A stretch of 64,000 bases of DNA. It comes from Armigeres subalbatus (lineage: Eukaryota; Arthropoda; Insecta; Diptera; Culicidae). The translations under genes and the position numbers were made by a program. Below, in pieces: positions 2,485 to 61,238 of this stretch. Below the pieces are notes generated by a model. It was given only the letters and a program-made list of their open reading frames with translations. It made no database searches and was not told the origin of the DNA. Position 1 is the stretch's first letter, and every line of letters begins with the position of its first letter. The stretch lies in contig NC_085140.1 of assembly GCF_024139115.2 (NCBI RefSeq), forward strand, positions 333,619,953-333,683,952, read 5' to 3'.

Positions 2485-2820
2485 AAGGTGGTGATATCTG
2501 ATAACGATACCAGCAGAGAAATTCGGAGACGCATCATGGCAGGAAATCGTACGTACTTTGGTGTTTATAACTTAATTACGATACAGTCCTTATTGATGGC
2601 ATATTATAGATGCTTGTTCCAATTAATTTTCACCCACTTGCTGGCTTACCCAGCAGTGTACCATTCATGTTTTTTTTAAATTGTCAAACATAATTATGTT
2701 GCTGCCAAGAAAGGCGCCGTAATTGCAAATAAGATTGATCCGTTGAAATGACTCATTCATACACCAAAACAATTGACCAAAAAGCAGCCGACTTGCTCCT
2801 GATTTTTAGGCTTTTGTAAT

Positions 2821-3615: not shown

Positions 3616-13080
<9,465 letters not shown>

Positions 13081-40100: not shown

Positions 40101-43100
40101 CCAAAACACAATCACTAATAGTAGTTTCCAAATGAACAGTGCACCGTTTGAGCGTTCGGCCGAACATCGGTTGAGCTTACTGCTTAAGTCACTGAGGATC
40201 TCCGCTTCAATACATCAGGTCAGTACGCTGTAGAATCGACCTGACATCAGTAACAAAAACAGAAATTGGGTCAAAATAGCTTAACATGCCTAATTTATAC
40301 AATTTAATCCGTAGATTCCGGAATGGGGTAAGGAAATGGATATACCTCGGCATCGTAGCATTCTGAAGCAGTTCACCAGTAAGAGCGACAGTAACCAAGT
40401 TATGACCGAGGAGAACATTAACCGTTCGAAACTTTATATGCAAAGGTAAGTCAACAGTTGTTACACTCATAATCTCGCAAGTCGTTTAGGGAAAAACTCG
40501 TCATCTCAAAACTCATGGACGAATCAAATCAACCGTGGTTTGTAACACGATGATGAGCTCATGAGCTCAAAAAAATATGATTTGAAACATGGCAGGGTTT
40601 TTTGCATGTTTTTATTTTTTTCTCAGACTAAGACTGGAGTGGCCTGTGCAGAAATCTAGACCAACATTTGAAAAGGGCGGAACAGCCAAAATGTAAACAT
40701 TGCAGTTTTTCGTTTGAATGCATAGAATATGGTGCAAACTAGCCCATAGTAATGAAAAAAATAAAATTTTCTATCAGTAAAAGTTATTTTGAGATACTTG
40801 AAAAATGGCGGATTTCCATCCTGGTTATATTCACCAAACATGGTTCTTACGCTATTCTTTCAAAAGCATAGGAACTTAGCGAAATTTGTGTGAATAAGGT
40901 AGGGTTTACTCTATCCTTCATATTGAGTCAATATTTATTGCATTTTCACTTATATTTGCTGTAATAATGAATATTTTAATGAGAAATACGAAACAAGGAT
41001 TTTCTACCTTTTGCTGGAGCTGTTGCTGTTACGGCGCGTACATCAGCCTGTTGAAAGGTTTATAGTGGAAATACGCCTTTCGAAAATAATCAGATGTAGG
41101 CTCCCGCGAGAGCTCTGTGCCTTTAAATTTTTGTTCAATGTGTACACTGGAATAGCATAGAAGTGATTAGATACCACGTTTGTTTCTATTAAACCCTAAT
41201 AATGCATAAAAATCATAATTAAATAGATTTTATTAATTTCTTTTTTGGTTCCTTACTGGAAACCTAACAAAAGCGCATTTTCGTTATGAAACCTAAAAAA
41301 TGTATATTAATAGCAGTTTTGCGCATATGTAACATGAAACTATTTGGAAGCAAATCTACTTCAGTCAGGTCATGTAAAATGAAACATTAGCATCAATACT
41401 AATGCCTTTCAGTGAGTGGATCAGTACCTATACCGAGTTGAGGCAAGCTTTAAGACAAATTATTTGAGAGACGTTCTTTAAGAATCAGTCACCCCCAGAA
41501 GTGATTCACCATATGCTGTTTATATTAGTTTAATTTGAATTAGTAAAATCGATTGTAAAACGATATAAAAACTTAAAGGTGCAGCCCAATGGGGTTGTAC
41601 GCAAAGGTGATGCAGAACCATGTATGTAATGAGTATTATTTGTTTGTGTGTCTTTAGTACAATGATATTTTACTCTTCTCAAAGTCTCAGCATTAACCCT
41701 CGGTATCGTTGCGTTTGAATTTTCTACAGCAACCACTTCCAACAACCGTAATTAATGCTGAAGGTTTACGGCTGCAGACTGATGATTAGAACTAAACTTA
41801 TTGTTGCATTAATTTGACTTCAAGGCGATGCACTTATAGGTTTGGTTGATTCACCGAAACCCATTGCGAAACTGTTAGAAAATTATCAATAGTAAATAAT
41901 TATCAATATATTTTATTCGAACACTGCACACTGTTCAAGAGCACTGACCTAAATTAGTATCCTAGGAAAACAAATTCAAGCGACGGCATGCTACACATTT
42001 TTCGGCTAGTAATGGAACACGTGGCCATCTAACACCAAGGCACGCTCTTAACTCATGTTCTGCATCTCTGCAGTCAACCTCAGCCATGTACCTGGATTAC
42101 CAAACGTTCCCTTGCCAATTTCGAAGGAGCGTATGAAAAAGTGGTTCCGATTGGTTAAGGTACGGAATTCATGTTTCAATAGTCTGAAACGTGGGCATTG
42201 AGTTGATCAATGTGAATCTCGAGCCTGCACAGTCAGCGGTTGTGGAAAAACGCACCATACCCATTTTGAGGAGTTATCTTCGATGCAACCAGTGAGTGAG
42301 TAACGAATCAAACACTGTTGCTTCGGATTCTCCGCGGATATGATCAAAATGTTTCGGTTGATTCCTGTAGATGACAAGGACACATGCTATCTTAGGATGC
42401 TTTACAGGGAAGACCCACAAGCGAATTGAAGACAGTGGCATACGGAACGTTGTGTGCCCCATTTTGTCCAACCGCTTGTTTGTAACAGCTTGGTATAGAG
42501 GAAGACCGAGTAGCGAAGAATGATTTTTATATGGACGACGCAATAACGGGAGCAAATACCATCGAGGAGGTGTTGGAATGCCAGTCGCAGCTCATTAAAC
42601 TACTGAAGCGAGGAGGTATTGAACTACACAAATGGTGTGAGAATGCACCTGAGCTTCTACAAGGGTTTCCGGAGCCAGACAGGGAACAACAGGTAAAAAT
42701 TGAAGATAGGTTATTCAACGACGTGATTAAAACCGTAGCACTCCTGTGTGAATCGTCAACCGACGTGTTCCTTTTTAAAATTCAAAACCCTAGTGAGCCT
42801 CCTGTCAACTACACGAAGCGAATAGTTTTGTCGGAAATGGCTAAAATGTTTGATCCCCTTGGTCTATTGGAGCCAGTGACTATTTTAGCAAAGCTATTCA
42901 CTCAACAGTTGTAGTCGTTGAAGTTGCCTTGGAACGATGCTGTTCCGAATGAGCTTGAGGATGAATGGCGGCGAGATTAAGGTACGTTGTGTTGTGGCAG
43001 AGGATGCCGAAACTTTCGAAGTACACAGGTTTTTGGATGCGAGCAAGAAAGCCTACGGAGCTTGTGTATAACTAAGAAGTTTGAGAAGTGATGGTACGTC

Positions 43101-44873
43101 TGTCATACATCTGCATAGCAGCAAAACTTGAGTTTCGCCATTACCCACGAAACCAGGGAGCAAGAAGTAAAAAAGGCTTGCTCCCTGGTTTCGAGAGCTA
43201 AGCTTTGCATTGATCTACTGTTGTAACGAATGTGTTGAAGGCTATGGATTCATTCATTTCATTTATTTAGTTAACATCTAAACAGATAACACTGAATCAA
43301 CAATTTGACGCCACAATGCACGGTTCGAGGCCGCATCTCTCCATCCTCGGATACGCCCCACGCTCGCTAAGTCGTTTTGCACCTGGTCTGCCCATCTCGC
43401 TCGCTGCGCTCCACGCCGTCTCGTACCTGCCGGATCGGAAGCGAACACCATCTTTGCAGGGTTGCTGTCCGGCATTCTTGCAACATGTCCTGCCCATCGT
43501 ACCCTTCCGGCTTTAGCTACCTTCTGGATACTGGGTTCGCCGTAGAGTTGGGCGAGCTCATGGTTCATTCTTCGCCGCCACACACCGCCAAAGATGGTCC
43601 TAAGCACCCGTCTCTCGAATACTCCGAGTGCTTGCAAGTCCTCCTCGAGCATTGTCCATGTTTCATGTCCGTAGAGGACAACCGTAATCGTTCCCCATAG
43701 TTAAATAAAATTGCACTTTGTCACTGCTTTTGAACGCGGGGCACTTTTTAAAAACTTATACCTTGTCACGGTCAGCCATGAGGCATCTCGGACTTCGGAT
43801 ATTAACGATTAACAAAGCGACTACGCGATGTAGAGTTGAGAAATGGAATGACTTTATTTTCATTTGGAACTTAAGAAGTAAGTTTGGACATATCAGAAAA
43901 TAGGAAGAAGGCTGATGGTTTAAAACAATAATGAAAGAACGACGCGCTAGCATTGTTTGGTAAACTGTTTGGGTCTTGCATATGCGTGTTATTTATTGCG
44001 CGCATATGGAAGCACTTTGAGAAGGTTATGGAAATAAGGAAAAGGTTTCGTTACTGACTGCATGTTTGATAAGTAAGGGATTTGGTTGTAGGTTTCTGTG
44101 TCACGCTGAGTAAGTGTTTAATTTATGACGGTAAAATGGATTGTATCATTATGCGGGTCAAGAAATATTGAAACTAAGTTTTTGGGAGAACTTTACTACG
44201 ACATCTAAGATTATTAAAAAAACCGCGTTAAATTCAAAACCACGTAAAAACGACTTTTTCAAAAATCGACCAAAAATCATTTTTTTACGCTTCACGTGTT
44301 TCCCGACCAATTAAAAAAATCGCGTGAAAAAAAAAACTTTGGAAAATCCGCGTAAAAAGCGACCTATGCGAGTCATCGCTGGAACGTTGCTGGACCGTCA
44401 CGTCAACTAGCGAGCGTTTTCGTGTTTGGTGCTGCAGTAACGCACTTACTGGAAAGAGGGTCGTCAGCGACCAGCGACGTTTCAGTCGAGCGACGTTGTT
44501 GAGACAAGTTCGTATGTTCTTGATTTTAGTTGGATCGACTATACTAAATGGATGGTATGTCAATTCTGTGTGTGGAATGAGTAATAATTAAGATTAATTA
44601 TTAATGAATGGACTCGACGCTAATCAGAAAGATGGCACTGGATAATCACTGCTAATGACTAACTATTCTCGCAGGGTCAACCAAATCATTCGGGACAAAT
44701 CGAATGCCACGGCCGTAACGTTCATGTACCTGCCGGTGCCTCCCAAGCTGTCGACCATCGACTACAAGGAAAAATGTCACCACTATCTGGATCTCCTCAC
44801 CGAGCTGACGTACGACCTACCACCGACGATACTGGTCCACGGTATCAACTCTGTGATGTCCACCACGCTGTAA
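37171..44873 (+). CDS. SLC12A9: Solute carrier family 12 member 9-like (CCC-interacting protein)
   Basis: This is a membrane protein of the cation-chloride cotransporter family, SLC12A9/CIP1 branch. Its transport substrate is less well settled than for its KCC and NKCC relatives. The exons are 37171-37453, 37532-37666, 37794-39417, 39475-39852, 40140-40218, 40315-40445 and 44675-44873. All junctions are GT-AG and in phase, giving 942 aa. A Ser/Gly-rich cytosolic N-terminus precedes the first membrane segment ([15 protein letters not shown]). Landmarks are [27 protein letters not shown] and [21 protein letters not shown] large loop carries N-glycosylation sites (NTTH, NGSY, NLTT). About 12 membrane segments precede a soluble C-terminal domain ([20 protein letters not shown]), and the protein ends [13 protein letters not shown]. 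The last intron is 4.2 kb and holds retrotransposon relics. The start at 37171 is the first in-frame ATG; an earlier start is not seen. Confidence 0.93.
40446..42319. other. SLC12A9 intron 6, proximal part
   Basis: AT-rich intron; no gene or clear mobile element was recognised. Confidence 0.4.
42320..42975 (+). pseudogene. BEL/Pao-type LTR retrotransposon pol fragment
   Basis: An internal piece of a Pao/BEL polymerase lies in SLC12A9 intron 6, on the gene's own strand. The RT part ([20 protein letters not shown]) is followed by frame breaks and then the catalytic YMDD in FYMDDAITG. The longest open piece, 42531-42911, shows the connection region ([20 protein letters not shown]) and ends in a TAG at 42912. 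No LTRs were seen. It is a dead fragment. Confidence 0.75.
43148..43193. repeat. 17-bp perfect hairpin with 12-nt loop
   Basis: CGAAACCAGGGAGCAAG at 43148-43164 is exactly inverted at 43177-43193. It lies between the two retrotransposon relics. Confidence 0.85.
43259..43699 (-). pseudogene. 5'-truncated non-LTR retrotransposon, ORF2 C-terminus
   Basis: The frame from about 43693 to 43278 reads the C-terminal tail of a LINE ORF2 ([20 protein letters not shown], then [19 protein letters not shown]). It lacks the endonuclease and RT core. After the stop come ATGA-like repeats (to 43259) as tail. A 5' truncation is typical of incomplete reverse transcription. It is antisense to SLC12A9. Confidence 0.7.
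43700..44674. other. SLC12A9 intron 6, distal part
   Basis: No gene was found. Around 44217-44365 there are A-rich blocks with repeated CGCGT(G/T)AAA words, a probable decayed repeat. The intron ends with TTCTCGCAG at 44674. Confidence 0.4.
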
Positions 44874-45676: not shown

Positions 45677-48600
45677 TTAACCCCATTCCGCAAAACTGTT
45701 AGGGTCTATTAGTGTTGGATTAATTTCCTGCAACGATGGGGGCAGATGGGCCCGCCCGCGTTGCTCTTCCGAATAAGTCCAGAACTGGGCATTGCAATCG
45801 GACGATTTCGCGGCTAACTTCTGTGTTCGTTTTTCCAGAAAATCCTTAGTGATTTCTTCAGCGGCTTCGATGTTGCTCATCACATCCGCTAAGCGTTTAG
45901 CTCGTTGCATGGCAAGTCGTCGCTCTGCAGATATATAGATCAGATTTGTATTTATGTATTTAGGACAGTGCTGTTTTTGCATTACCTTTTTGCTGAAGTC
46001 GCATCAACTGATCTGGACTGTAGTGGCTGTAGCGACAGCTTGCGCCAAAAGTACACTCATCTGATGTGAGTAATGTTCGACAGGGCTTCTTTCTAGCGTT
46101 TTCCTCTAATACTTTGGTAACATCTGTGGGAATGATAAAAATGGGAAGTTATTGGAGCTTATAAGGTTTATTAACGACGCATCTATAATGCAGCTACGGA
46201 AGATCTGTATATATAAAAAAAATGGTCTGTGTTCGTATCCGCATAACTCGAAAAAGGCTAGATGGATTGTAATCATTCCCTCAGTAGATATGTTCGGTAT
46301 AGTTTCCGACGGGCTTATATAATACATTTCCTTATGCAAACATTACACAGCAAAAATTTTTGTTGAATATTACATCGAAATCGCTGCAACCCGTCGATTC
46401 CATCGATTGTTGAATATTACACTGCGCGATGTACTCAAGAGCTTGCTGTGTAATAAACAGAATCGATGTGATTTTTCCCGATGTAAAAATTATTCGATGT
46501 AATCGAGGTGACGTAAAATGAAGGAACGTAAAATAGTGCGACGTACGTAGCATTTGTTTCATGGAGTTTTTTCGTGGTTTCCTTAGTTCAATAATTTCTA
46601 ATCAAGTTTTTCAGGGATTTGCAAATTTAATACTTTTATTAAAATCTATTTATAAATGTCCAATACATCGGTATCTTGACGCAGATCTGCAAAGAGCATT
46701 TTCCCTAAATCCCGTTGCCGTCCGTAGGTTGCGCATGCCACGGTGAAAACAGGTTGTTTATTCACAAACTGCTTTTTTATGAATTATTCGGAATCCAGGT
46801 TCCAGTATCGATCTGCAGATCAATGGTAGCCCATACACTGGATTACCTTCGCCGGAGTGATATTGAACAAAATAGTACGGTAGGCTTCCGCATCCGTAGC
46901 CGCTTCAAAACCGCTGAAAATAATGAGTAAAACATGTTTAGCAGTTCTATGCACATGACCGACAAAGGAATTGGTATAGAAAAATCTGGATCCAGTAGGA
47001 GCCATGTTCCGAGATGATTAGATGTACTTCTTTAGGCGCTAGGCGAATTTTTGGTATTTCGATGTCAAACCTCCTAGCGTAAACTACGTTTGAAATTGTT
47101 AGATTCCGAATGGAACCAACATGGGAATGAAAAAAAAACTTCATGAAATCCGGAAGAAAATCTATAGATATATCAGTAATCTGGTACGGTTCATTATTGC
47201 ATTAGGTTAGTTCCGAAGCGATTTTTTTAGTTTCTGAAGGAAATCCATTGAACACGAAGGAAATCTTACAGGCATTCCGGAACAAATTCTCTTGGATTTC
47301 GGAATGGAATCCTTTCTAAACCTAATGAATCCTTGTACTGAAGGTATTTTTTGAATTTTGAAACTTTTAAGGATTTTGAAGGGAATCTTCATAAGAATCC
47401 GAAGGATTAAAGGCAATTTTCTTTCTAGGATTCCTGAGGAAATCCTTCTGGGGTTCCTTTGATAATGTTTTCAAGATTTCTGAGGAAATCCTTGTGGGAT
47501 TCCTGAGGGAATCCAGAGAGAATACTTCTAACATTCCAACGTGATTCCTTCTGAGATTCCTGAAAAATTCTTCTGGGATGCCTTAGATTTCTTTTTAGAT
47601 TTCTTCCTGAGGAAATCCTTCTGGGATCATGAAAACATCCTTCTATGATTCCTGAGGAAATCTTTCTGGGAATGCTGAAAGTATACTTCTACGCGATTCC
47701 TTCTGAGATTCATGAGAGAATCCTTAGAGAATCCTTCAGGAATTTGTGAGGGGATCCTTCTGGGATTCCTGAAAGAATTCTTCTGAGATTCCTTTGATAA
47801 TCTTTTCGAGATTTCTGAGAAAACTCTTCTGAGATTCCTGGGAAAATCTTTCTGGAATTCGTGAGGGAATCCTTCCGATATTTCTGACAGTATCCTTTTG
47901 GGGTTCCTTGGATCATCTTTCTTAGAATTCGTGAGGATCCTTCTGGAATTCGTGAGGATCCTTCTAGGATTCAAAAAAACTTTTGGGATCCCTTAGATAA
48001 TCTTTTCAAGATTCCTGAGGAAATCCTTCTATGATTCCTGAGAAAATCGTTAGTATCCTTATGGGATTCCTGAAAGAAATCCTTTAGGGGTTCCTTAGGT
48101 AATCTTTTCGAGATTCCTGAGAAAATCCATCTGGGATTCCTGAGAGTATACTTCTAGGATTCCTACGCGATTCCTTTACAAGATTCCTGAGGAAATCCTT
48201 CTGAGATTCCTGAGAAAATCGATCTGGGATTCCTGAGGAAATTCTTCTGGGAATCTTGAGAGAATTCTTTTGGAATTCATTAGGGAATCCTTTTGGGATT
48301 TCTGATAGAATCGTTCTGGAATTCGTTAGAGGATCCTTCTGGGATTCATGAAAGAATCCTTTTGGAGTTCCTTAGATAATCTTTCCGAGATTCCTGAGGA
48401 AATCCTTCTGAGATTCCTGAAGGAATCCTGAGAGTATACTTTTATGATGCTTACGCGATTCCTTTTGAGATTCATGAGAGAATCCTTCTGGAATTCGTGA
48501 GGAGATCCTTTTAGAATTCATGAAAAAATCCTTTTGGGATTCCTTAGAAAATCTTTTCTTTCTGAGCAAATTCTTCTGGGATTCCTGAGAAAACCGTTCT

Positions 48601-51600
48601 GGGCTTCCTGAGAAAATCCTTCTGGGAATCTTGAGATAATTCTTCTGGTATTCGCGAGGGAATCCTTCTGGGATTCCTGAATGAATCCTCTTGGGGTTCC
48701 TTAGATAATCTTTCCGAGATTCCTGAGGAAATCCTTCTGAGATTCCTGAGGGAATCCACAGGGTATACTTCTAATATTCCTACGCGATTCCTGAGAAATT
48801 CCTTTGAAAATTCTTGAGAATCCTTCTAGGGTTCATGAAAAACCCATTTGGGATTCCTTAGTCAATCTTTTCAAGATGCAAATCCTTATGGAATTCCTGA
48901 GAAAATCGTTCTGGGATTCCTGCGGAAATTCTTCTGGGAATCTTGAGAGAAATTTTCTGGAATTCGTGAGGGGATTCAAGAAAAAATCCTTTTGGGGTTC
49001 CTTAGATAATCTTTTCAAGGTTCCTGAGCAAATCCTTGGGGGATTCCTGAGAAAATCATTCTAGTATTTCTGAGGAAATCCTTCTGGGAATCTTGAGAGA
49101 AATCTTCTGGAATTCGTGGGGGATATTTCTGGGATTCATGAGGAAATCCTTTTGGGTTTCCTAAGATAATCTTTTTAAGATTCCTGAGAAAATACTTCTG
49201 GGAATCCTGAAAGTATACTTCTGGTATTCCTGAGGAAATCTTTCTGGGATTCCTTAGATAATCGAGATTCCTGAAGAAATCCTTCTTGGAATCCTGAGAG
49301 AATTATTCTGGAATTCGTGAGGGGATCCTTCTGGGATTCTTGAAAGAATCCTTCTGGGATTCCTTTGATAATCTTTTCGTGAGGAAATCGTTCTGGGATT
49401 CCTGAGAAAATCCTTCTGGAAATCGTGAGGGAATCCTTCTGAAATTCATGAAAAAATCGTTTCGTTTCCCGAGATTTCTGAAAAAATCCTTCTGGGAATC
49501 CTGAGAGAATCCATCTGGAATTCGTGAGTGGATCTTTCTGGGATTCATGAAAGAATCCATTTGGAGTTCCTTAGATAATCTTTCCGAAATTCCTGAGGAA
49601 ATCCTTCTGGGATTCGTGAGAAAATCGTTCTGGGATTCCTGAGGAAATCCTTCTGGGAATCTTGAGAGAAATCTTCTGGAATTCGTGAGGGGATCCTTCT
49701 GGGATTTATGAATAAAACCTTTTGGGGTTCCTTAGATGACCTTTTCGAGATTCCTGAGAAAATCCTTCTGGCATTCCTGAGGAAATCCTTATGGGATTCC
49801 TTAGATAATCTTTTCGAGATTCCTGAAGAAAATCCTTCTAGGAATCCTGAGAGAATTCTTCTGGAATTCGTGAGGGGATCCTTCTGGGATTCTTGAAAGA
49901 ATCCTTCTGGGATTCCTTTGATAATCTTTTCGTGAGGAAATCGTTCTGAGATTCCTGAGGGGATCCTTCTGGGATTCTTGAAAGAATCCTTCTGGGTTTT
50001 CTAAGATAATCTTTTCGAGATTCCTGAGAAAATACTTCTGGGATTACTGAAACAATCTTTCTGGGAATCCTGAAAGTATACTTCTGGTATTCCTGAGGAA
50101 ATCCTTCTGGGAATCCTAAGAGAAACCTTCTGGAATTCGTGAGGATCCTTCTGGGATTTCTGAAAGAATCCTTCTGGGATTCCTTTGATAATATTTTCGT
50201 AAGGAAATCGTTCTGGGATTCCTGAGAAAATCCTTCTGAATTCATGAGGGAATCCTGCTAGGATTCATGAAAATCTTTTGGGATTACTTAGAAAATCATT
50301 TCAAGATTCCTGAGCAAATCCTTCTGGAATTTCTGAGAAAATCGTTCTGGGATTCTTGAGAGAAATCTTCCGGAATTCGTGAGGAGATCCTTCTGGGATT
50401 CATGAAAGAATCCTTTTGGGATTCTTCAAATAATCTTTTCGAGATTCCTGAGAAAATCCTTCTAGGATTCTTGAGGGAGTGCAGAGAGCTCGGCAGAGAG
50501 TATACTTCTAAGATTCCTTCGCGATTACTTCTGTGATTCCTGAGAGAATCCATCTGGAATTCGTGAGGGATCCTTCTCGGATTCCTTCTGAGATATTTTT
50601 TCAAGATACCTGAGGACATACTTCTGTGATTCCTAAGAAAATCCTTCTGGGATTCCTGAGAAAATCCTTCTGGGATCATGAAAACATCCTTCTATGATTC
50701 CTGAGGAAATCTTTCTGGGAATGCTGAAAGTATACCTTTAAGATTGCTACGCGATTCCTTCTGAGATTCATGAGAGAATCCTTAGAGAATCCTTCAGGAA
50801 TTTGTGAGGGTATCCTTCTGGGATTCCTGAAAGAATTCTTCTGAGATTCCTTTGATAATCTTTTCGAGAAATCTGAGAAAACTCTTCTGGGATTCCTGGG
50901 AAAATCTTTCTGGAATTCGTGAGGGAATCCTTCCGATATTTCTGACAGTATCCTTTTGGGGTTCCTTGGATCATCTTTCTTAGAATTCGTGAGGGGATCC
51001 TTCTGGAATTCGTGAGGGGATCCTTCTAGGATTCATAAAAAAAACTTTTGGGATTCCTTAGATAATCTTTTCAAGATTCCTGAGGAAATCCTTCTATGAT
51101 TCCTGAGAAAATCGTTAGTATCCTTATAGGATTCCTGAAAGAAATCCTTTAGGGGTTCCTTAGGTAATCTTTTCGAGATTCCTGAGAAAATCCATCTGGG
51201 ATTCCTGAGAGTATACTTCTAGGATTCCTACGCGATTCCTTTACAAGATTCCTGAGGAAATCCTTCTGAGATTCCTGAGAAAATCGATCTGGGATTCCTG
51301 AGGAAATTCTTCTGGGAATCTTGAGAGAATTCTTTTGGAATTCGTTAGGGAATCCTTTTGGGATTTCTGATAGAATCGTTCTGGAATTCGTTAGGGGATC
51401 CTTCTGGGATTCATGAAAGAATCCTTTTGGAGTTCTTTAGATAATACTTCCGAGATTCCTGAGGAAATCCTTCTGAGATTCCTGAAGGAATCCTGAGAGT
51501 ATACTTTTATGATGCTTACGCGATTCCTTTTGAGATTCATGAGAGAATCCTTCTGGAATTCGTGAAGAGATCCTTCTAGAATTCATGGAAAAATCCTTTT

Positions 51601-54600
51601 GGGATTCCTTAGAAAATCTTTTCTTTCTGAGCAAATTCTTCTGGGATTCCTGAGAAACCCGTTCTGGGATTCCTGAGAAAATCCTTCTGAGAATCTTGAG
51701 ATAATTCTTCTGGTATTCGCGAGGGAATCCTTCTGGGATTCCTGAATGAATCCTTTTGGGGTTCCTTAGATAATCTTTCCGAGATTCCTGAGGAAATCCT
51801 TCTGAGATTCCTGAGGGAATCCACAGGGTATACTTCTAATATTTCTACGCGATTCCTGAGAAATTCCTTTAAAAATTCTTGAGAATCCTTCTAGGGTTCA
51901 TGAAAAAACCCATTTGGGATTCCTTAGTTAATCTTTTCAAGATTCCTGAGCAAATCCTTATGGAATTCCTGCGGAAATTCTTCTGGGAATCTTGAGAGAA
52001 ATTTTCTGGAATTCGTGAGGGGATTCTTCTGGGATTCATGAAAGAATCCTTTTGGGGTTCCTTAGATAATCTTTTCAAGGTTCCTGAGCAAATCCTTGGG
52101 GGATTCCTGAGAAAATCATTCTAGTATTTCTGAGGAAATCCTTCTGGGAATCTTGAGAGAAATCTTCTGGAATTCGTGGGGGATATTTCTGGGATTCATG
52201 AGGAAATCCTTTTGGGTTTCCTAAGATAATCTTTTTAAGATTCCTGAGAAAATACTTCTGGGAATCCTGAAAGATACTTCTGGTATTCCTGAGGAAATCT
52301 TTCTGGGATTCCTTAGATAATCGAGATTCCTGAAGAAATCCTTCTTGGAATCCTGAGAGAATCCTTCTGGAATTCGTGAGGGGATCCTTCTGGGATTCTT
52401 GAAAGAATCCTTCTGGGATTCCTTTGATAATCTTTTCGTGAGGAAATCGTTCTGGGATTCCTGAGAAAATCCTTCTGGAAATCGTGAGGGAATCCTTCTG
52501 AAATTCATGAAAAATCGTTTCGTTTCCCGAGATTTCTGAAAAATCCTTCTGGGAATCCTGAGAGAATCCATCTGGAATTCGTGAGTGGATCTTTCTGGGA
52601 TTCATGAAAGAATCCATTTGGAGTTCCTTAGATAATCTTTCCGAAATTCCTGAGGAAATCCTTCTGGGATTCGTGAGAAAATCGTTCTGGGATTCCTGAG
52701 GAAATCCTTCTGGGAATCTTGAGAGAAATCTTTTGGAATTCGTGAGGGATCCTTCTGGGATTTATGAATAAAACCTTTTGGGGTTCCTTAGATGACCTTT
52801 TCGAGATTCCTGAGAAAATCCTCCTGGCATTCCTGAGGAAATCCTTATGGGATTCCTTAGATAATCTTTTCGAGATTCCTGAAGAAAATCCTTCTAGGAA
52901 TCCTGAGAGAATTCTTCTGGAATTCGTGAGGATCCTTCTGGGATTCTTGAAAGAATCCTTCTGGGATTCCTTTGATAATCTTTTCGTGAGGAAATCGTTC
53001 TGAGATTCCTGAAGGGATCCTTCTGGGATTCTTGAAAGAATCCTTCTGGGTTTTCTAAGATAATCTTTTCGAGATTCCTGAGAAAATACTTCTGGGATTA
53101 CTGAAACAATCTTTTTGGGAATCCTGAAAGTATACTTCTGGTATTCCTGAGGAAATCCTTCTGGGAATCCTAAGAGAAACCTTCTGGAATTCGTGAGGGG
53201 ATCCTTCTGGGATTTCTGAAAGAATCCTTCTGGGATTCCTTTGATAATATTTTCGTAAGGAAATCGTTCTGGGATTCCTGAGAAAATCCTTCTGGAATTC
53301 ATGAGGGAATCCTGCTAGGATTCATGAAAAAATCTTTTTGGGATTACTTAGAAAATCATTTCAAGATTCCTGAGCAAATCCTTCTGGGATTTCTGAGAAA
53401 ATCGTTCTGGGATTCTTGAGAGAAATCTTCCGGAATTCGTGAGGAGATCCTTCTGGGATTCATGAAAGAATCCTTTTGGGATTCTTCAGATAATCTTTTC
53501 GAGATTCCTGAGAAAATCCTTCTAGGATTCTTGAAGGAGTGCAGAGAGTATACTTCTAAGATTCCTTCGCGATTACTTCTGTGATTCCTGAGAGAATCCT
53601 CCTGGAATTCGTGAGGGATCCTTCTCGAACTCCTTCTGAGATATTTTTTTCAAGATACCTGAGGACATACTTCTGTGATTCCTAAGAAAATCCTTCTGGG
53701 ATTCCTGAGAGAATCCTTCTGGGAGTCCTGAGAGTATACTTTTAGGATTCCTACGAGATTCCTTTTGGTATTTTTTTGGGATTCCTGAGATATTGATTTT
53801 TTGGGATTCCTGAGAGAATCTTTCTGGAACTTCTGAGTAAATACTTATAGGATTCCGAAACGATTCCATCTTAGGTTCCTTAGATTTTTTTTTAGATTCC
53901 TGAGGGAATCCCCCTGGGATTCCTGAGATAATCCTTCTGGATACCCGAAGAAATGCTGCTGGTAATACGAAAGCAATCTTTTTGAGATTCCTGAGATAAT
54001 TTTTCTTGGACTCCTGAGCAAAAACATCAGGAATTTTGAAGGAAATCCTTCTGGGATTCCTCTGGATTTTTTTTGGGATTTCTGAAGGTTTTTCTTCGGA
54101 AAAAATAGGTTTTCCTTTGTGGTTTTTTTTTTTCGGGAATCCCAAAAGTTTCCCGTCGGAATCCCGAAAGGGTTCCCGTCCGAATCCTGAAAGGGTTCCC
54201 GTCGGAATCCCGGAAGAATTCCAACAGAATCTCGAAACGATTCCCGTCGGAATATTGGAAGGATTCCGAAAGGATTCCCGTCAGAATCTCGAAAGGATTC
54301 CCGTCAGAATCTCGCAAGGTTTCCCGTCAAATTCCGAAAAGGTCGGAATCCCAAAAGGATTCCCGTCGGAATCCCGAAAGGATTCCCGTCGGAATCCCGA
54401 AAGGATTCCCGTCGGAATCCCCAAAGGATTCCCGTCGGAATCGCGAAAGGATTCCCGTCGGAATCGCGAAAGGATTCCCGTCGGAATCCCGAAAGGATTC
54501 CCGTCGGAATCCCGAAAGGATTCCTGTCGGAATCCCGAAAGGATTCCCGTCGGAATCCCGAAAGGATTCCCGTCGGAATCCCGAAAGGATTCCCGTCGGA

Positions 54601-57600
54601 ATCCCGAAAGGATTCCCGTCGGAATCCCGAAAGGATTCCCGTCGGAATCCCGAAAGGAATCCCGAAAGGATTCCCGTCGGAATCCCGAAAGGATTCCCGT
54701 CGGAATCCCGAAAGGATTCCCGTCGGAATCCCGAAAGGATTCCCGTCGGAATCCCGAAAGGATTCCCGTCGGAATCCCGAAAGGATTCCCGTCGGAATCC
54801 CGAAAGGATTCCCGTCGGAATCCCGAAAGGACTCCCGTCGGAATCCCGAAAGGATTCCCGTCGGAATCCCGAAAGGATTCCCGTCGGAATCCCGAAAGGA
54901 TTCCCGTCGGAATCCCGAAAGGATTCCCGTCGGAATCCCGAAAGGATTCCCGTCGGAATCCCGAAAGGATTCCCGTCGGAATCCCGAAAGGATTCCCGTC
55001 GGAATCCCGAAAGGATTCCCGTCGGAATCCCGAAAGGATTCCCTTCGGAATCCCGAAAGGATTCCCGTCGGAATCCCGAAAGGATTACCGTCGGAATCCC
55101 GAAAGGATTCCCGTCGGAATCCCGAAAGGATTCCCGTCGGAATCCCGAAAGGATTCCCGTCGGAATCCCGAAAGGATTCCCGTCGGAATCCCGAAAGGAT
55201 TCCCGTCGGAATCCCGAAAGGATTCCCGTCGGAATCCCAAAAGGATTCCCGTCGGAATCCCAAAAGGATTCCCGTCGGAATCCCAAAAGGATTCCCGTCG
55301 GAATCCCAAAAGGATTCCCGTCAGAATTCCGTAAGGATTCCCGTCAGAATTCCGTAAGAATTCTCATCGAAATCCCAAAAGGATTTTAGTCGGAATGCCA
55401 AAAGGATTCCCGTCAGAATCCCGAAAGAATTCTTTCGAGAATCCCAAAGGTATTTCTCCGGGAACCCCAAATAGAATTCTTTTAAGATGTGATGATGAAC
55501 TTTTAAGATGTGGTGATGAACTTATTTATAAAATAAAATAAAAAATCACAAAAATAAAGACCAAAAAAAATCCTTCTAGAATCACAAAAGTATTTCTACA
55601 GGAATCCAGAAAGCATTCCTTTAGGAATCCAAAAAGGTTTGTTTTTTAATCCCAGATCCCTTTCGCAAAAAAAAAATTCAAATAGATTCTTTTCGAAATC
55701 GTAAATATATTCCTTTTGGAATCCTTAAATGATTCATTTCAGAAGCCCAAAATGATTACAAAATGATTAAATGGGAATCTTAAAACGATGCCTTTCAGAA
55801 TCCAAAAAGAATTCTTTTAGAGATCTCAAAGCTTCTTTTCGGAATATCATACCGATTCATTTCAGAATCCCAGAGTTCTTAACGGAATTCCAAAAGATTC
55901 CTTTCAGGTCTCTCCTTATACTCTCGGAATCCTTAAAGTTAAAAGTGAATACAAAGTGAATTCACTAACCGGCTAGTGTCAAAAAATACAAATTGCAATA
56001 AGTCAGTTCACATTGCTAGCTTATAACCTAATTATTATAATTTAAAATATTTCTTACTTTACACACCTTTGCCATTCAGTTTCACAAGCAAAGTGATCAA
56101 AGGATAACCACCAGTTCAGAGTGCGGTACCGGTAGCAGGAATAGCTTGTCCTTCTTGCATCACCCAAAAAGAACCTGATCGATTTCGTTCACCGATGAGA
56201 AACTATTCAAGTAACGCCAGCACACAGTGGCTGAATATTGAAGCATCCGGAAGATAATGTTTCAACAACCTGATCCCGTGCTGAAATTAAAGAAATTTAT
56301 GTATTTATTTATTCTTTTACCTATATTATAAATTCATTAAACAGCAATTACTTTTAAAGCGATAGATCGAGCTGAAAACAAAATTATGATGTCTAAATCT
56401 AAAAAAGCAGACTGTGAAACCTAGAAGACTCCCCAAACCTAAGGGGTCGTACACATATTACGTAAGCAATTTTTCTGGGTTTTCTGGGTTTTCGGCGTGC
56501 ACGGAGCTTGAAAGAACTCTAAGTGAGCATCGGCTCCAAAAGTCGCCCAAAACAGCCGCACAAAAATCGTTATCTAACCTGACATGAGTTCCCAGTCTTT
56601 TCAATCATAATCAAGAAAAATAATTTAAAAAACATTCCGAAATATAAGGCAACGTGCGAATTATCCATCACATCATTCTTTATTATTGAATAATATCTTC
56701 CGAGGTGTCTGCTTACGTAATAAAACCAAGTTCCGGTTCTGGAGAAAAAAGATATGAATAAATTTTATGAAAAGACCCGTATATAAGCATATTTATTTTA
56801 TAAATATATGTACACTCGATCCAGTGCATGGAGACCAAGATCCGGCGGAAAAATTTTCCGAGATTTGAGCTACCTTAAATCCTTGTATAATAAATCTAGT
56901 TGAAAACCAGAATGGGCGTCTAGCGAAATTGGATTTTTTTCAGAATCCGAATCCGAATCCGAATGAAACTAACTTCGGAAGTGGTGCGCTGTATAGCGCT
57001 TTGCAAAACGAAAGCAGCGCACCACTTCCGAAGTTAAGTTTAGCGTATAAATACGGATTAAAAGGAAAAACCAACTTTGCTAGTCACTCATTCCGGTTTT
57101 CAACTGGGTTGAGTAAATAAGGATTTTAGGTAGTCTCATACCTCTGTAAAATTTTTCACCGGATGTTGGTCCCCGAGCATTTTGAATGGGGCGGGGATTT
57201 CGATTTTCCTTGCCCAAATCCCGAAAACATCGCCTATGTAGCAAAAAACATGAGAAAAATTCCGCGGAAAATATTCCCGAGGCGTGAGGCTACCTTTATA
57301 AACAAGAACTATCAAAAACTATAAGAATAATCCCATTTTTTAGTATACTTAAACTTTCTCTAAAACTGTACTTACCAGATCCACATTCAACTGATTTGGT
57401 TAATGACGATTTTGTACGGATAATCATTAATAATCGCACCATTTCTGCAAAACTAGTGCTAATGAATGCCATTGCTTGGGTTTCATCAATCAAACTGAAC
57501 CCCAGAAAAACGAAATTCATCTGACAGGCTATCAACGGGTTGTAGCTGCTTGGTCTAATCCGGACAGGTGCAGGTTGAAGAATTGCCTCATTTTCTCCTG

Positions 57601-59878
57601 GGTGGAACGACACACAACCGAATACAATCGAGCCAATTGGTCTCAGGATAGTCACGCCACCGATACGGCCGTCGGAAATGTATCCCCACTACAACACTCC
57701 GGCCAGTGTGACGGTTGGCGGCCGTTTCCATAGCCAAATGATAGATGCTCTGTCACGGAGTGATGCTTTCGGAACCCGGCGGCGCGGATACATACATCCG
57801 TGAACATGACGAGTTTCTAGCGGCGAGAGCTCGCTTTGCGATTTTGATCTACGGAAGAAACTTGATGTATTGCTGAAAACAGTGTCAAATACAAAATTCT
57901 CAATTACTTACCAATTTTCAGAAAAAAAACCGCAAAAGCTTTATACGAAAATGAAGCACTACAATAAACAAACTAATTTTTCAGTGTTTCGTTAGATATT
58001 TTAATTAAAGACACTATTTAAATAGTGTTTTTTATTTCGATGATTAAATCGTAACAATTTTTACTTTGAGACAAAACAAATATGGTGGCCCGTCCTCATC
58101 GATGACACGGCAAACGAAAAGTGAGAAGTGTTGCTAGATTGAAAATTATAGCAACATCAAATACAATATTACACTAAATTTGTGTAATATCACACAAACT
58201 ATTTAGAACCAACTGGTTGCATCAGATTCTGTGTAATATTTACCCTTTCAACATTCGAACATTACACAGCTGCAACGTAATACAACTTGGTGAATCTCAT
58301 TCCTGTGTAATTTGTAGCTGATGTAATATTACATAAAAATGTATGTTAATGTGCATTCAAATTTTGACATTACATCGATTTTTTAGCACATAGCTTCGAT
58401 TACGTCGATGGATATTACATTAATTTTTGCTGTGTACGAGTAAAGTTGAGGAAATTGTGAAACACTGAAATTACGATTCGTATAGATACCTCGTTTGGGC
58501 AGTTCACACCGCGCATTTTTGCCTACTATGCAGGACAACGTCTGCTGGGTCAACTATATTGCCGCTAACCGCAAGTCAGACTTATCTGTATATGGACGCC
58601 ATATCCAGATAAGTCTGACTTGCGGTTAGCGGCAGTATAGTCTAGTACTAGACTGAGGAAACTTGAACTTTATTTTTCTCGGTTTAGTGTTGTTGGCTTT
58701 TCGGCCCTAATCATATGTTGCTTGAGAATTGTTTTCAAGACAGGAACAACGTCTTCGACCAGAGGTCGTACAGATTGAACACTTAGGCAGCTGGCAGACG
58801 AATCTAAACAATAAATTAACAAAAACAATAGGACACAATGTTGACAATTTGACATGGTATTAAACTCAAATGTATGTTTGTTATACATTAAACAGTTCAG
58901 AAACATTCAAAAATTGGTGGCAATATAGTTCCCACTGCCCGTAAAGCGGGTGGCAACATACTTGCCACTGCCCAGCAAGTAGAAAAATAGGCAACAACAA
59001 CAATAAATAAAAGATTTTTTAAAATTAGGTTTTACGTAAAGACAATCAAATCAAGGCACGTTACATTTTTTGGTAAAGAGTCCTCGTCGCAAAACGCATT
59101 ATAAGTGAAAAAAAATTGTTTTTGCGCTTTTGTTCCCAAAAGGGGACCCTTTGGGAAAAAACACAATTTCGTAAAAAATCCAAAAACCAAATATTCAGAA
59201 AGGCAAAGCTTTTTTCACGCTAATCACGTAATAATCTAACACAGGAGATTCAAAATAGTTAATACCAACAGGAAAAAATATCTTTGTCGTTTTTTTTAAC
59301 GAATTAGGATAGTGGTGCAAGCAATATTTGGTAGTTGTTGATGTAAAGAGACATCAATCTCATTTTTGTAAGCAAATTAATTGGTTTATCTATTGGCTAA
59401 TATATTAAAGCTGTCCCATATATACAGTAGACCTTCGATAACTGCAATGCTTTTTAACTGCAATTCGATTGCAACAGTTTAGCAGATCGGACTGCTAAAC
59501 TTCAAACTGATGTCAAACTCAATGACAGCTGCACATTTATTGCATCTGTCGTCGATTGACAACCGTTTGACGTCTAGAATGCGTTGCAGTTATCAAACGG
59601 CATTCGTTAACTGAAAAGTAAACATTTCGCAGTTATCGAACGGCTAGTAACTGTAATCAATAAAAAAAATCTTTTGTGGATCTACTAATACCTCCACTAT
59701 TGATACCGTTACCCTAATAGAACTTCTCTATCCAACGCTCTTTACGTATACCTTTGCAAGACTCGTAATGGGCCGATTTATTCCGGAGATGTGGAATACC
59801 TTCATTATGTTTACGGACAATATCGGAGTCCCGTTGAATGTGGGTTTTACAATAATCACAATAGTATTTTTTACCCAT
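45677..59878 (-). CDS. ZMAT5: ZMAT5, U11/U12 snRNP 20-kDa protein
   Basis: This is a component of the U11/U12 di-snRNP of the minor (U12-type) spliceosome. The exons are 59878-59752, 46123-45986 and 45924-45677. The splices join in phase (1, 1) to give 170 aa, the length of human ZMAT5. Exon 1 encodes the U1-type C2H2 finger: MGKKYYCDYC, with His24 and His30 (C-x2-C-x13-H-x5-H), the spacing of the human protein. Exon 2 gives the CCCH finger (C-x8-C-x5-C-x3-H; PCRTLLTSDECTFGASCRYS). Exon 3 carries a coiled, charged stretch and the conserved end LPPSLQEINPT...AEWG. Intron 1 is 13,628 bp and holds MITEs, an 8.7-kb satellite and a possible small gene. Its donor (GTATACGT) is not the U12 consensus. 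Confidence 0.93.
46344..46452. mobile_element. Short MITE, TACACAGCAAAAATT end
   Basis: TACACAGCAAAAATTTTTGT at 46344 and GCTGTGTA ending near 46451 mark a possible 109-bp element in ZMAT5 intron 1. The same end occurs inverted at 58436. Confidence 0.45.
46453..47207. other. ZMAT5 intron 1, left flank of satellite
   Basis: No gene was found. Further GATGTAA words follow the MITE to about 46530. The rest is unremarkable until the satellite begins. Confidence 0.4.
47615..50665. repeat. 3.05-kb higher-order block, copy 1
   Basis: It begins around GGGATCATGAAAACATCCTT (about 47622). It matches the next block point by point at an offset of 3044-3065 bp. The boundaries are approximate. Confidence 0.85.
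50666..53720. repeat. 3.05-kb higher-order block, copy 2
   Basis: It begins around GGGATCATGAAAACATCCTT (about 50672) and runs to about 53720, where the copies end together. Differences from copy 1 are scattered substitutions and short indels: for example, GCTCGGCAGAGA at about 50490 is missing at about 53545, and about 24 bp at 48880-48930 differ from 51940-51980. Confidence 0.85.
54120..55480. repeat. Satellite family B, homogeneous 23-bp units
   Basis: The unit is GGATTCCCGTCGGAATCCC plus GAAA (23 bp). About 41 near-identical copies lie between 54357 and 55319, with diverged copies on both edges. One 12-bp partial unit is inserted near 54650. Edge variants cluster: CCCCAAAGG and CGCGAAAGG on the left, four CCCAAAAGG units on the right. 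GGATTCC and GGAATCC in each unit are mutual inverses around CGTC. Frames on both strands lack stops for more than 900 nt. Confidence 0.97.
55481..55940. repeat. Diverged tail of the satellite
   Basis: Scattered GGAATCCnnAAAG words at 15-35 bp spacing fade out by about 55940. A direct repeat, CTTTTAAGATGTGRTGATGA, lies at 55482-55520. Confidence 0.6.
55941..56896. other. ZMAT5 intron 1, right of satellite
   Basis: No gene was found. GGGGTCGTACACATATTACG near 56450 resembles a common insect repeat word, but no ends could be defined. Confidence 0.35.
56897..57107. mobile_element. MITE or foldback, GTTGAAAACCAGAATG ends
   Basis: AGTTGAAAACCAGAATGGG on the left and CATTCCGGTTTTCAACTGGG on the right are inverse. 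An inner hairpin pairs AACTTCGGAAGTGGTGCGCT with AGCGCACCACTTCCGAAGTT. Related sequence lies at 19206-19250. Confidence 0.65.
57108..58264. other. ZMAT5 intron 1; open frame of unknown origin
   Basis: A 119-codon minus-strand frame at 57296-57655 ends beside a GTAAGT donor-like motif (57380 region), but I recognise no family. It may be a decayed gene fragment. The rest is AT-rich. Confidence 0.25.
58265..58436. mobile_element. TACACAG-ended MITE relic
   Basis: Several TGTAATATT/AATATTACA words end in TAATTTTTGCTGTGTA at 58436, the inverse of the end at 46344. The left limit (TACACAGCTGCAACG at about 58265) is uncertain. Confidence 0.4.
58553..58641. repeat. 89-bp palindrome with 28-bp perfect arms
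   Basis: The arm 58561-58588 (GCCGCTAACCGCAAGTCAGA...) is perfectly inverted at 58606-58633. Outer ACTATA/TATAGT and inner TATGG/CCATA extend the symmetry. Transcribed from either strand it would fold into a miRNA-precursor-sized hairpin. Confidence 0.9.
58670..58855 (-). CDS. Possible small secreted peptide
   Basis: This is a 61-codon frame with a strong signal-peptide pattern: MSNCQHCVLLFLLIYCLDSS has a hydrophobic core followed by SAS/C, a plausible cleavage site. A short charged mature part has PLVEDVVPVLKTILKQHM and a KPTTLNREK tail. The TAA stop overlaps an AATAAA signal (plus strand TTTATT near 58668). It lies in ZMAT5 intron 1 on the same strand. No family is recognised and no promoter was identified. 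It could be a chance frame; the signal-like N-terminus and the adjacent poly(A) signal are the only support. Confidence 0.3.
   Translation of the reverse strand: MSNCQHCVLLFLLIYCLDSSASCLSVQSVRPLVEDVVPVLKTILKQHMIRAEKPTTLNREK
58856..59424. other. ZMAT5 intron 1, AT-rich
   Basis: No gene was found. A GGTGGCAA(T/C)AT(A/T) motif repeats at about 58916 and 58950 (GTTCCCACTGCCC and CTTGCCACTGCCC follow). Confidence 0.35.
59425..59653. mobile_element. TA-flanked MITE, CAGTAG ends, copy 2
   Basis: A shortened relative of 15254-15530 with shared CTTCAAACTGATGTCA, ACAACCGTTTGACGTCTAGA and CAGTTATCGAACGGCTA. The borders are TA. It lies 99 bp from ZMAT5 exon 1. Confidence 0.75.
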
Positions 59879-60394: not shown

Positions 60395-60524
60395 AGTAGT
60401 GCGGTACTGTGCGGTATATAAACATTGAACACGCGAAAGGTCGGACCTGACCGCGGCAAACATCGGAATAAACCAAGAATAAACAGTTTCGAATAAAAGT
60501 TTCATACCTAAAAAGCACAGAAAT

Positions 60525-61238
60525 ATGACCGCTCTAGTTGACGCACCGGTTCTGCCGGGCTTCCGCGTGGAGGAAGCCATCGAGATGGCCAAAGCAAACA
60601 AAAAGGTCATTCTAGGGCCGGGTCTCCGCCAGGACAGGGACGATCTCGTGCTGGTGTGCAAAAGTGGTGTCCTGAGGAAGAAGACCCCCAACACATTTTG
60701 GGTTGATTGCTATCAAAAACGGTACGTCCCGAATCGCGGTGAGATTGTGGTAGGAGTCGTCAGCCAGAAAGCGGGAGACATTTTTCGAATAGACATTGGC
60801 GGTAGTGAGCCGGCGTCCCTGTCCTACCTAGCGTTCGAGGGTGCCACCAAAAAGAACCGGCCCGATGTTAACGTGGGCGATGCAATTTGTGCCCGATTGC
60901 TCATAGCTAACAGGGATCTGGAACCGGAATTGATTTGTGTGGATTCGTATGGAAAGAAGGGCAAGCTGGGCGTTCTACATGATGGTTTTGTGTTCAACTG
61001 TAGCATAAATTTGGTGAGGAAAATATTGAACCCAAAATGTACCTTCCTGGATCTGCTGGCGAAGGAGATGGCATTCGAGTTAGCCGCTGGAATGAACGGC
61101 AGGATATGGATAAAGGGAAAAACGGTGAAGGAAACCATCGCCGTTGGGAACGCCATTTTAGCTGTCGAGTTCAAATCCAACGAGGAACTGAAGGAGCTCT
61201 GTGACGACATTGGCAGCTATGTTGCCGGATTTTCGTAG
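60525..61238 (+). CDS. Rrp40: Exosome complex component RRP40
   Basis: This is an RNA-binding cap subunit of the RNA exosome (EXOSC3), acting in nucleus and cytoplasm in 3'-5' RNA processing and decay. It is a single exon of 237 aa, close to the family length. An N-terminal domain (residues 1 to about 68) is followed by an S1-type domain (about 69-150: RGEIVVGVVSQKAGDIFRID). The KH-type domain (about 155-230) has NGRIWIKG at 191-198 and an ENGXI-like loop as in other Rrp40 proteins. The ATG has a good context (AGAAATATGACC). The start is conserved, with PGFRVEEAI following. It is divergent from ZMAT5 and convergent with the tantalus-like gene, 163 bp from that gene's stop. ATTAAA near 61263 may serve as poly(A) signal. 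Confidence 0.96.
   Translation: MTALVDAPVLPGFRVEEAIEMAKANKKVILGPGLRQDRDDLVLVCKSGVLRKKTPNTFWVDCYQKRYVPNRGEIVVGVVSQKAGDIFRIDIGGSEPASLSYLAFEGATKKNRPDVNVGDAICARLLIANRDLEPELICVDSYGKKGKLGVLHDGFVFNCSINLVRKILNPKCTFLDLLAKEMAFELAAGMNGRIWIKGKTVKETIAVGNAILAVEFKSNEELKELCDDIGSYVAGFS

What the first reader, a model, noticed from the sequence alone, without database searches (positions are those of the whole stretch)
47208..55940. Two satellite families with the same 23-bp register abut inside one intron
Family A (ATTCCTGAGGAAATCCTTCTGGG) and family B (ATTCCCGTCGGAATCCCGAAAGG) both measure 23 bp. They align as ATTCC-n5-GAATCC-n5-GG with matching fixed positions. A is old and diverged, while B is nearly uniform in its centre with variants gathered at its edges. 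This suggests that B is a recent re-amplification of one A-like unit by unequal exchange. The edge-to-centre gradient is visible directly.
Basis: partly seen in the sequence, partly recalled or inferred. Interest (0 to 1): 0.75.

Follow-up and report, generated by a model that had tools for sequence, protein, structure and literature searches.

The report
Mosquito transposon with inverted satellite arms
Two neighbouring arrays of 23-base repeats turn out to be mirror-image arms inside a 12-kilobase jumping element that has landed at several places in this mosquito genome, so the repeats travelled with the element instead of arising side by side in an intron.

Summary
The arrays are real: A at about 47.4-54.1 kb, B at 54.14-55.44 kb, period 23. 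B's centre is uniform and its edges varied. The reading changes in four ways.
(1) A and B are related in opposite orientation: profile score 20.0 bits reverse-complement, 2.4 same-strand; permuted maximum 8.5 in 5000.
(2) No intron is supported: SLC12A9's last coding exon ends at 44,870; the next gene recognised, RRP40, starts near 60.5 kb.
(3) Both arrays lie inside a dispersed element, window 46,344-58,436. Two further copies on contig C3 share its sharp ends, short terminal inverted repeats (TACACAGCAAAAATT...) and matched flanking dinucleotides, TA, TA and TG. Diverged relatives also hold A-type then B-type arms.
(4) B did not arise here: both C3 copies carry it with largely the same edge variants, and its 36-mer has 1,021 exact places genome-wide. 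Its centre was homogenised in this copy. A, called old, holds a 3.05-kb tandem duplication (98.6% ungapped) not seen in those copies.
Best reading: a non-autonomous DNA transposon with internal inverted satellite arms.

The parts
46344..58436 (+). whole dispersed element with its target dinucleotide on both sides (element proper 46346-58434)
   Evidence: both C3 copies match with ends at 46344/46346 and 58435/58436 and then stop; ends and flanks shown
46344..46345 (+). left copy of target-site dinucleotide TA
   Evidence: TA/TA here and in C3:189.84, TG/TG in C3:35.47
46346..46378 (+). left terminal inverted repeat CACAGCAAAAATT...
   Evidence: inverted match to 58436-58405, 82.9% over 35 bp, E 0.011; alignment; 18-base pattern exact at both ends
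46379..47219 (+). left non-array part of element
   Evidence: first 350 bp of the element 98.0% to C3:189.84 and 96.9% to C3:35.47, ungapped; matches run on to 47.4 kb
47420..54061 (+). A satellite array, left arm, unit GGATTCCTGAGGAAATCCTTCTG
   Evidence: TRF; 295 units
47620..50669 (+). first copy of 3.05-kb tandem duplication within A
   Evidence: 98.6% ungapped identity to the next block, 21 gap runs; sharp edges
50670..53719 (+). second copy of the 3.05-kb block
   Evidence: about 2.9 kb of block in C3:189.84 and about 3.7 kb in C3:35.47, lengths taken by hand
54062..54135 (+). T-rich junction between the inverted arms
   Evidence: sequence; stretch 53720-54130 is 97.6% to C3:189.84 and 97.5% to C3:35.47, ungapped
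54136..55440 (-). B satellite array, right arm, in inverted orientation relative to A; unit written on + strand GGATTCCCGTCGGAATCCCGAAA
   Evidence: TRF, units, orientation
55441..55945 (-). degenerate outer part of right arm
   Evidence: shared with the C3 copies
55948..56000 (+). conserved tail just outside right arm (GTGAATTCACTAACCGGCTA at 55956-55975)
   Evidence: pattern at 7 places genome-wide, reversed control 0; alignment to L011 scores 45 against a maximum of 28 in 19,967 control pieces
56001..58404 (+). right non-array part of element, no recognisable transposase
   Evidence: 96.7-98.8% ungapped to C3:189.84 in three stretches; longest open frame 130 aa, no Pfam match
58405..58434 (-). 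right terminal inverted repeat
58435..58436 (+). right copy of target-site dinucleotide TA

Best explanation
Window 46,344-58,436 is one insertion of a large (about 12.1 kb) non-autonomous DNA transposon. Its interior is dominated by two arms of one 23-bp satellite family in inverted orientation, A on the left and B plus its degenerate fringe on the right. Shown: shared sharp ends in three insertions at different sites, terminal inverted repeats, matched flanking dinucleotides, opposite orientation of the arms, the same left-right order in diverged relatives, arrays that differ more between copies than the rest of the element, and an A-block duplication seen only in this copy of the three. Inferred: a transposase supplied by another element recognises the TACACAGC ends and inserts the element at TA-like dinucleotides, so the satellites are carried along. 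The arms arose by inversion or fold-back of one satellite array in an ancestral element and then diverged. Inside each insertion, unequal exchange resizes and homogenises the arrays, keeping old variants at the edges and cleaner repeats in the centre.
For: Ends: window matches to the copies at C3:189.84 Mb and C3:35.47 Mb stop at 46344/46346 on the left and 58435/58436 on the right, in 2 of 2 copies. TIRs and dinucleotides TA/TA, TA/TA, TG/TG. TIR 35-mer: 3 places with 0-1 mismatch, which are these three copies, and 86+76 places with up to 3 mismatches; reversed control 0 (only the first places are listed). Orientation: 20.0 against 2.4 bits, 0 of 5000 permutations reaching 20. Of 8 loci with B arrays (window and 7 on C1), 4 have an A-type arm beside the B-type arm, in the order A-type then B-type: window, L011, L017 (A-type arm split by an insertion) and L019 (567 bp between). 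The labels for the window and L011 are by construction, since their own arms were in the reference set; independent support is the inverted match of the arms in the window, in L011 (756 bp, E 4e-78) and in L017 (434 bp, E 7e-26). The same 4 carry the element's left end and 3 a clear right end; L011's right end is damaged, L019's left end is split by about 1.4 kb. L017 (10,321 bp) and L019 (11,942 bp) end in TACACAG...CTGTGTA. The first 44 kb of the window show neither arms nor ends.
Against: No transposase or autonomous partner was found and the superfamily is not assigned. TIRs are short (15 bp clear, 35 bp imperfect; BLAST E 0.011 on its own). The flanking repeat is only 2 bp, so TA could be read as part of the terminus; TG/TG in C3:35.47 is the main evidence otherwise. 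Only three copies exist at 0-1 mismatch of the terminus. Of the 8 B-array loci, L009, L013 and L015 show a B-type array alone and no terminus, and L021 carries a left-type end right of its B array and an A-type piece only about 5 kb away, so B arrays also occur outside complete elements. L017 has an A-type piece 7.4 kb to the right of its B array, and L011 a second B-orientation piece. With four informative loci, constant arm order alone is weak (two-sided chance 1/8). The same-strand score of 2.4 bits also exceeds the permutation null (p 0.0036), and a stricter null that keeps the heptamers and shuffles only spacers gives p 0.036 for the reverse score and 0.013 for the difference. Three further places were asked for and not answered; the B loci hold the first 100 of 1,021 places only.
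Confidence: 0.9

Rival explanations
1. One reading: B is a local, recent re-amplification of one A-like unit in the same register by unequal exchange.
For: A and B are related, B's centre is homogeneous with variants at the edges, and the centre is more uniform here than in the C3 copies.
Against: B is inverted relative to A. B with largely the same edge variants is in both C3 copies. The B 36-mer has 1,021 places.
Confidence: 0.05
2. Segmental duplication: a 12-kb block containing an inverted satellite pair was copied to three places by recombination, not by transposition.
For: Only three close copies; no transposase recognised in the element.
Against: Both ends coincide to within 1-2 bp in the three copies, are inverted repeats and are flanked by matched dinucleotides; the ends recur in diverged relatives and the terminus at 162 places.
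Confidence: 0.05
3. The 3.05-kb duplication in A is an assembly artefact (two haplotypes placed in tandem), while the transposon itself is real.
For: 98.6% ungapped identity with 21 gap runs could be allelic difference, and C3:189.84 has only about one block.
Against: Breaks lie inside the array with continuous neighbours; tandem duplication is ordinary in satellite arrays, and the A block of C3:35.47 is also longer than that of C3:189.84.
Confidence: 0.3
4. Two unrelated minisatellites sharing a palindromic GGATTCC/GGAATCC core by chance.
For: The unit is nearly self-complementary (A with its own reverse complement 14/23, B 16/23), so part of the match is architecture; the spacer-shuffling null is exceeded only at p 0.036.
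Against: 20.0 bits against a permuted maximum of 8.5; BLAST A to B minus strand over 1,360 bp, E 7e-42; in L011 the two arms match inverted over 756 bp, E 4e-78.
Confidence: 0.08

Closest known systems
Tetris foldback transposon of Drosophila virilis (PMC4079207; abstract and the section 'Characterization of Tetris' read)
   Same: Apparently non-autonomous DNA element with inverted arms that contain tandem repeats; repeat number varies; the repeats also form longer satellite-like arrays.
   Different: Tetris repeats are about 220 bp and lie in its long TIRs, with 8-10 bp target duplications. Here the unit is 23 bp, the arms are internal and away from short TIRs, the two arms have diverged (64% in BLAST), and the target duplication is 2 bp.
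Galileo / Foldback elements of Drosophila (starts of abstracts in a search listing only)
   Different: No sequence comparison made; here the outer TIRs are short and of unknown superfamily.
Dinucleotide-target MITE-like elements of Aedes, e.g. the ATon families (PMC3422177; abstract and passages read)
   Same: TIR-bearing non-autonomous elements of Aedes with a dinucleotide target (AT; TA confirmed there for one other family).
   Different: ATons are under 500 bp; this element is 12.1 kb and carries satellite arms. Their termini were not compared by sequence.
CACTA-related TRC elements, including one of 9.2 kb in Aedes aegypti (PMC1636069; passages read)
   Same: Size range, short TIRs and 2-bp direct repeats.
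   Different: The Aedes TRC terminus is reported as CCCAGTCAAC; here it is CACAGCAAAAATT, and no transposase was recognised.

Membership tests
Class II (TIR) DNA transposon, non-autonomous | same termini at unrelated genomic sites | tested here: met
   3 close copies with coincident ends; L017 and L019 likewise, more diverged
Class II (TIR) DNA transposon, non-autonomous | terminal inverted repeats | tested here: met
   46344-46378 against 58436-58405, E 0.011; alignment; same form in the C3 copies, L017 and L019
Class II (TIR) DNA transposon, non-autonomous | target-site duplication | tested here: met
   2-bp repeat in 5 of 6 insertions whose two ends were looked at: TA in four, TG in one; L011's right end is damaged
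Class II (TIR) DNA transposon, non-autonomous | transposase acting on these ends | not testable with these tools
   none recognised: Pfam run on 4 of 9 window frames of at least 70 aa and on 7 of 28 frames of at least 80 aa in L011, L017 and L019, no match above a cut-off; autonomous partner not found
Foldback element (Tetris/FB type) | inverted arms made of tandem repeats | tested here: met
   A and B arms inverted; L011 and L017 arms inverted
Foldback element (Tetris/FB type) | the repeat-bearing arms are the long terminal inverted repeats themselves | tested here: not met
   arms start about 0.9-1.1 kb and end about 2.5 kb inside the termini; between the flanks no inverted match longer than 59 bp at E up to 1
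CACTA/TRC superfamily | CACTA- or CCC-type terminus and Transposase_21 | tested here: inconclusive
   terminus begins CACAG after the dinucleotide; no transposase recognised
Intronic satellite of SLC12A9 | coding exons on both sides | tested here: not met
   last coding exon ends at 44,870

The most novel reading that the evidence does not exclude
The TACACAGC transposons are carriers and nurseries of the GGATTCC-type minisatellites: inverted arms of the 23-bp family are a lasting, heritable part of a diverged family of 8-12 kb elements, and much of the genome's dispersed 23-bp satellite was seeded by their insertion. If the arms are kept because their fold (dyad units, hairpin-forming B strand) serves transposition or small-RNA production, this would be a distinct transposon design.
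Probability: 0.3. Interest if true: 0.7.

Novelty: new variant of a known kind. Interest (0 to 1): 0.55.

Why it matters
Tandem repeats are reported to cover about 4.5-6.7% of Aedes aegypti chromosomes, with minisatellites the main cause of the excess on chromosome 1 (PMC4021624, passages), and how such repeats spread is rarely visible. Here several insertions of one element give matched arrays, so array turnover can be measured against the element's own non-array sequence. In this set BLAST identity to the C3 copies is 80-90% inside the arrays and 91-98% outside; part of the difference may be misaligned register. It also warns that adjacent satellites with the same period may be two arms of a mobile element.

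Tried and rejected
Intron of SLC12A9: tested and rejected by exon mapping. Same-strand register between A and B: rejected. Viral-contig scan for the B unit: 0 matches. Inverted copy of the tail at the left end: none. Coding function of B: its long open frames appear in all six frames, as expected of a 23-bp unit without stops. RNA folding of single 115-nt pieces: B strands fold better than shuffles (z -3.5 and -4.9), A strands do not (z -1.3 and -0.1), the outer right arm moderately (z -2.4); a hairpin role was left as speculation. By eye I first thought L015 and L021 also had an A-type arm next to B; the BLAST classification did not show this, and I did not count them. Chance match of the tail: a first control reached the observed score in 12 of 20,000 pieces; with L011's own site left out, the maximum was 28 in 19,967. 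Transposase: none by Pfam in the frames tested. Published sequence: four repeat strings gave 0 papers; three terminus strings gave one unrelated Salmonella paper; keyword searches showed no such element in the listings seen. Only open-licence PMC text is held. Random genome sampling for background density was not possible.
Full report
Observation. The two arrays exist as described in size and period. TRF reports A-type rows between 47,423 and 54,061 and B at 54,136-55,432. Decomposition gives 295 A units and 59 B units, with mean pairwise identity 0.708 (A), 0.914 (B) and 0.977 (B core). B's variants sit at its edges: 4.6 and 3.4 differences per unit (first 12, last 10) against 0.49 in the 37 between; 0 of 20,000 permutations reach the observed correlation.

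Orientation. The B unit is GGATTCC-CGTC-GGAATCC-CGAAA, two complementary heptamers; A has the same 7-4-7-5 plan. The unit is half-symmetric, so such satellites align in register on either strand. The full profiles decide: A against B scores 2.4 bits on the same strand and 20.0 bits reversed, with a permuted maximum of 8.5 in 5000. The same-strand score is itself above the null (p 0.0036), as the symmetry predicts. When only spacer columns are shuffled, the reverse score exceeds the null modestly (p 0.036; difference p 0.013). BLAST joins A and B on the minus strand (1,360 bp, 64%, E 7e-42). In a scan of 230-bp pieces, inverted B is second best from 47,290 to 53,959 and inverted A from 54,190 to the end of B; the piece across the junction is undecided. 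AT skew changes sign at the junction.

Place. tblastn of three SLC12A9 proteins maps coding exons from 37,171 to 44,870, first to last residue. RRP40 lies at 60,483-61,238. On the exons found the arrays are intergenic.

Dispersal. The B 36-mer has 491+530 exact places in the 1.336-Gb genome, reversed control 0. I read the 7 loci that hold the first 100 listed places (20 kb each). With the window, 4 of 8 show an A-type arm followed by a B-type arm (window, L011, L017, L019), 3 of 8 a B-type array alone (L009, L013, L015), and L021 an A-type piece about 5 kb away. The window's and L011's arms were part of that call's reference set, so their labels are by construction; the inverted match of their own arms is independent, as is that of L017. 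L019 rests alone. In L017 the A-type arm is interrupted by another insertion. The first 44 kb of the window have none.

The element. A 20-bp pattern just right of the window's B arm (GTGAAYTCACTAACYGGCTA) occurs at 7 places genome-wide, reversed control 0: the window, L011, two close relatives on C3 and three diverged relatives (L024-L026; 83-84% over 121 bp). Reading the C3 relatives showed that the match runs from 46,344/46,346 to 58,435/58,436 in both and stops. The ends are TACACAGCAAAAATT... and its inverted form; flanking dinucleotides are TA/TA (window), TA/TA (C3:189.84 Mb) and TG/TG (C3:35.47 Mb). By BLAST alone the window's two ends match weakly (35 bp, E 0.011); their recurrence in the copies is the stronger evidence. 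L017 (10,321 bp) and L019 (11,942 bp) have the same kind of ends with TA/TA; L011 has the left end and a damaged right end; L021 has a left-type end on the wrong side of its B array; L009, L013 and L015 have neither. The 35-bp terminus has 3 places at 0-1 mismatch and 162 at up to 3, reversed control 0. This is a transposon by structure. It looks non-autonomous: in the window's non-array parts the longest open frame is 130 aa, in the relatives 164 aa, and Pfam found nothing above a cut-off in the 4 of 9 and 7 of 28 frames tested.

Array dynamics. Outside the arrays the window copy differs from the C3:189.84 copy by 1.2-3.3%, ungapped, in four stretches. By BLAST with gaps, matches are 91-98% outside the arrays, 89-90% in B and 80-85% over the A block (best matches), so the arrays change faster, though misaligned register adds to this. 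Edge units of B are largely shared by the three copies while the centres differ, and the window's centre is the most uniform: the edges are inherited and the uniform centre is probably the work of this copy. B spans 1,305 bp here and about 1,256 and 1,961 bp in C3:189.84 and C3:35.47. The A array of the window holds a 3.05-kb tandem duplication (47,620-50,669 and 50,670-53,719; 2,973 matches, 41 mismatches, 21 gap runs) with sharp edges. The C3:189.84 copy has about 2.9 kb and C3:35.47 about 3.7 kb in this part (taken by hand). The duplication is therefore younger than the split of the copies, or an assembly artefact, which these data cannot exclude.

Mechanism. Shown: marks of mobility, inverted arms, fast array turnover. 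Inferred: transposition in trans by a transposase of the wider TACACAGC family, an ancient inversion or fold-back that made the two arms, and unequal exchange within arms. Not shown: any function of the arms.

Comparison. Tetris of Drosophila virilis is the nearest precedent read: a non-autonomous foldback element whose repeat-bearing inverted arms supplied longer satellite arrays. The present element works like it in carrying inverted tandem-repeat arms, but its arms are internal, strongly diverged and made of 23-bp units, and its target duplication is 2 bp, so it is not filed as a foldback member. Superfamily is left open; the Aedes CACTA-related element in PMC1636069 has a different terminus.

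Limits. The seven further B loci lie in the first 119 Mb of C1 and were chosen by B content. Four informative loci make the constant arm order suggestive only. The TIR places beyond the copies described could not be read because the service was busy.

Noticed in passing
L017/L018 joined coordinates about 4078-8276: A nested structure inside the L017 element: repeats of about 150 bp in inverted arms (491 bp at 91%) outside a 24-bp GGAATTCC-type satellite that is itself inverted about its centre; a foldback-like element inserted in the A-type arm.
   Followed up: partly
L024, L025, L026: Three diverged relatives with a degenerate B-orientation arm and the same tail (83-84% over 121 bp); they share a 55-72 bp piece with window 2489-2560.
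   Followed up: partly
window 281-2060: Two open frames (331 and 185 aa); the first looks to me, by eye, like a transposase. Pfam gives no match for it and only matches below cut-off for the second.
   Followed up: partly
window 46344-46453: The left end holds a second, inverted copy of the terminus (GCTGTGTAA) about 100 bp in, like a small element at the tip of the large one.
   Followed up: no
window 6138-9028: A frame that looks by eye like a LINE endonuclease/reverse transcriptase lies between the COPA C-terminal frame (3616-5256, Pfam COPI_C) and a WD-repeat frame at 10687-12681 that I take by eye for COPA's N-terminus, both on the minus strand.
   Followed up: no
window 54018-55389: Long open frames in all six frames across B, an effect of the stop-free 23-bp unit.
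   Followed up: yes
right flanks of L009, L017, L019: A shared module of about 170-310 bp at 73-74% identity with an exon-like piece, perhaps captured gene sequence.
   Followed up: partly
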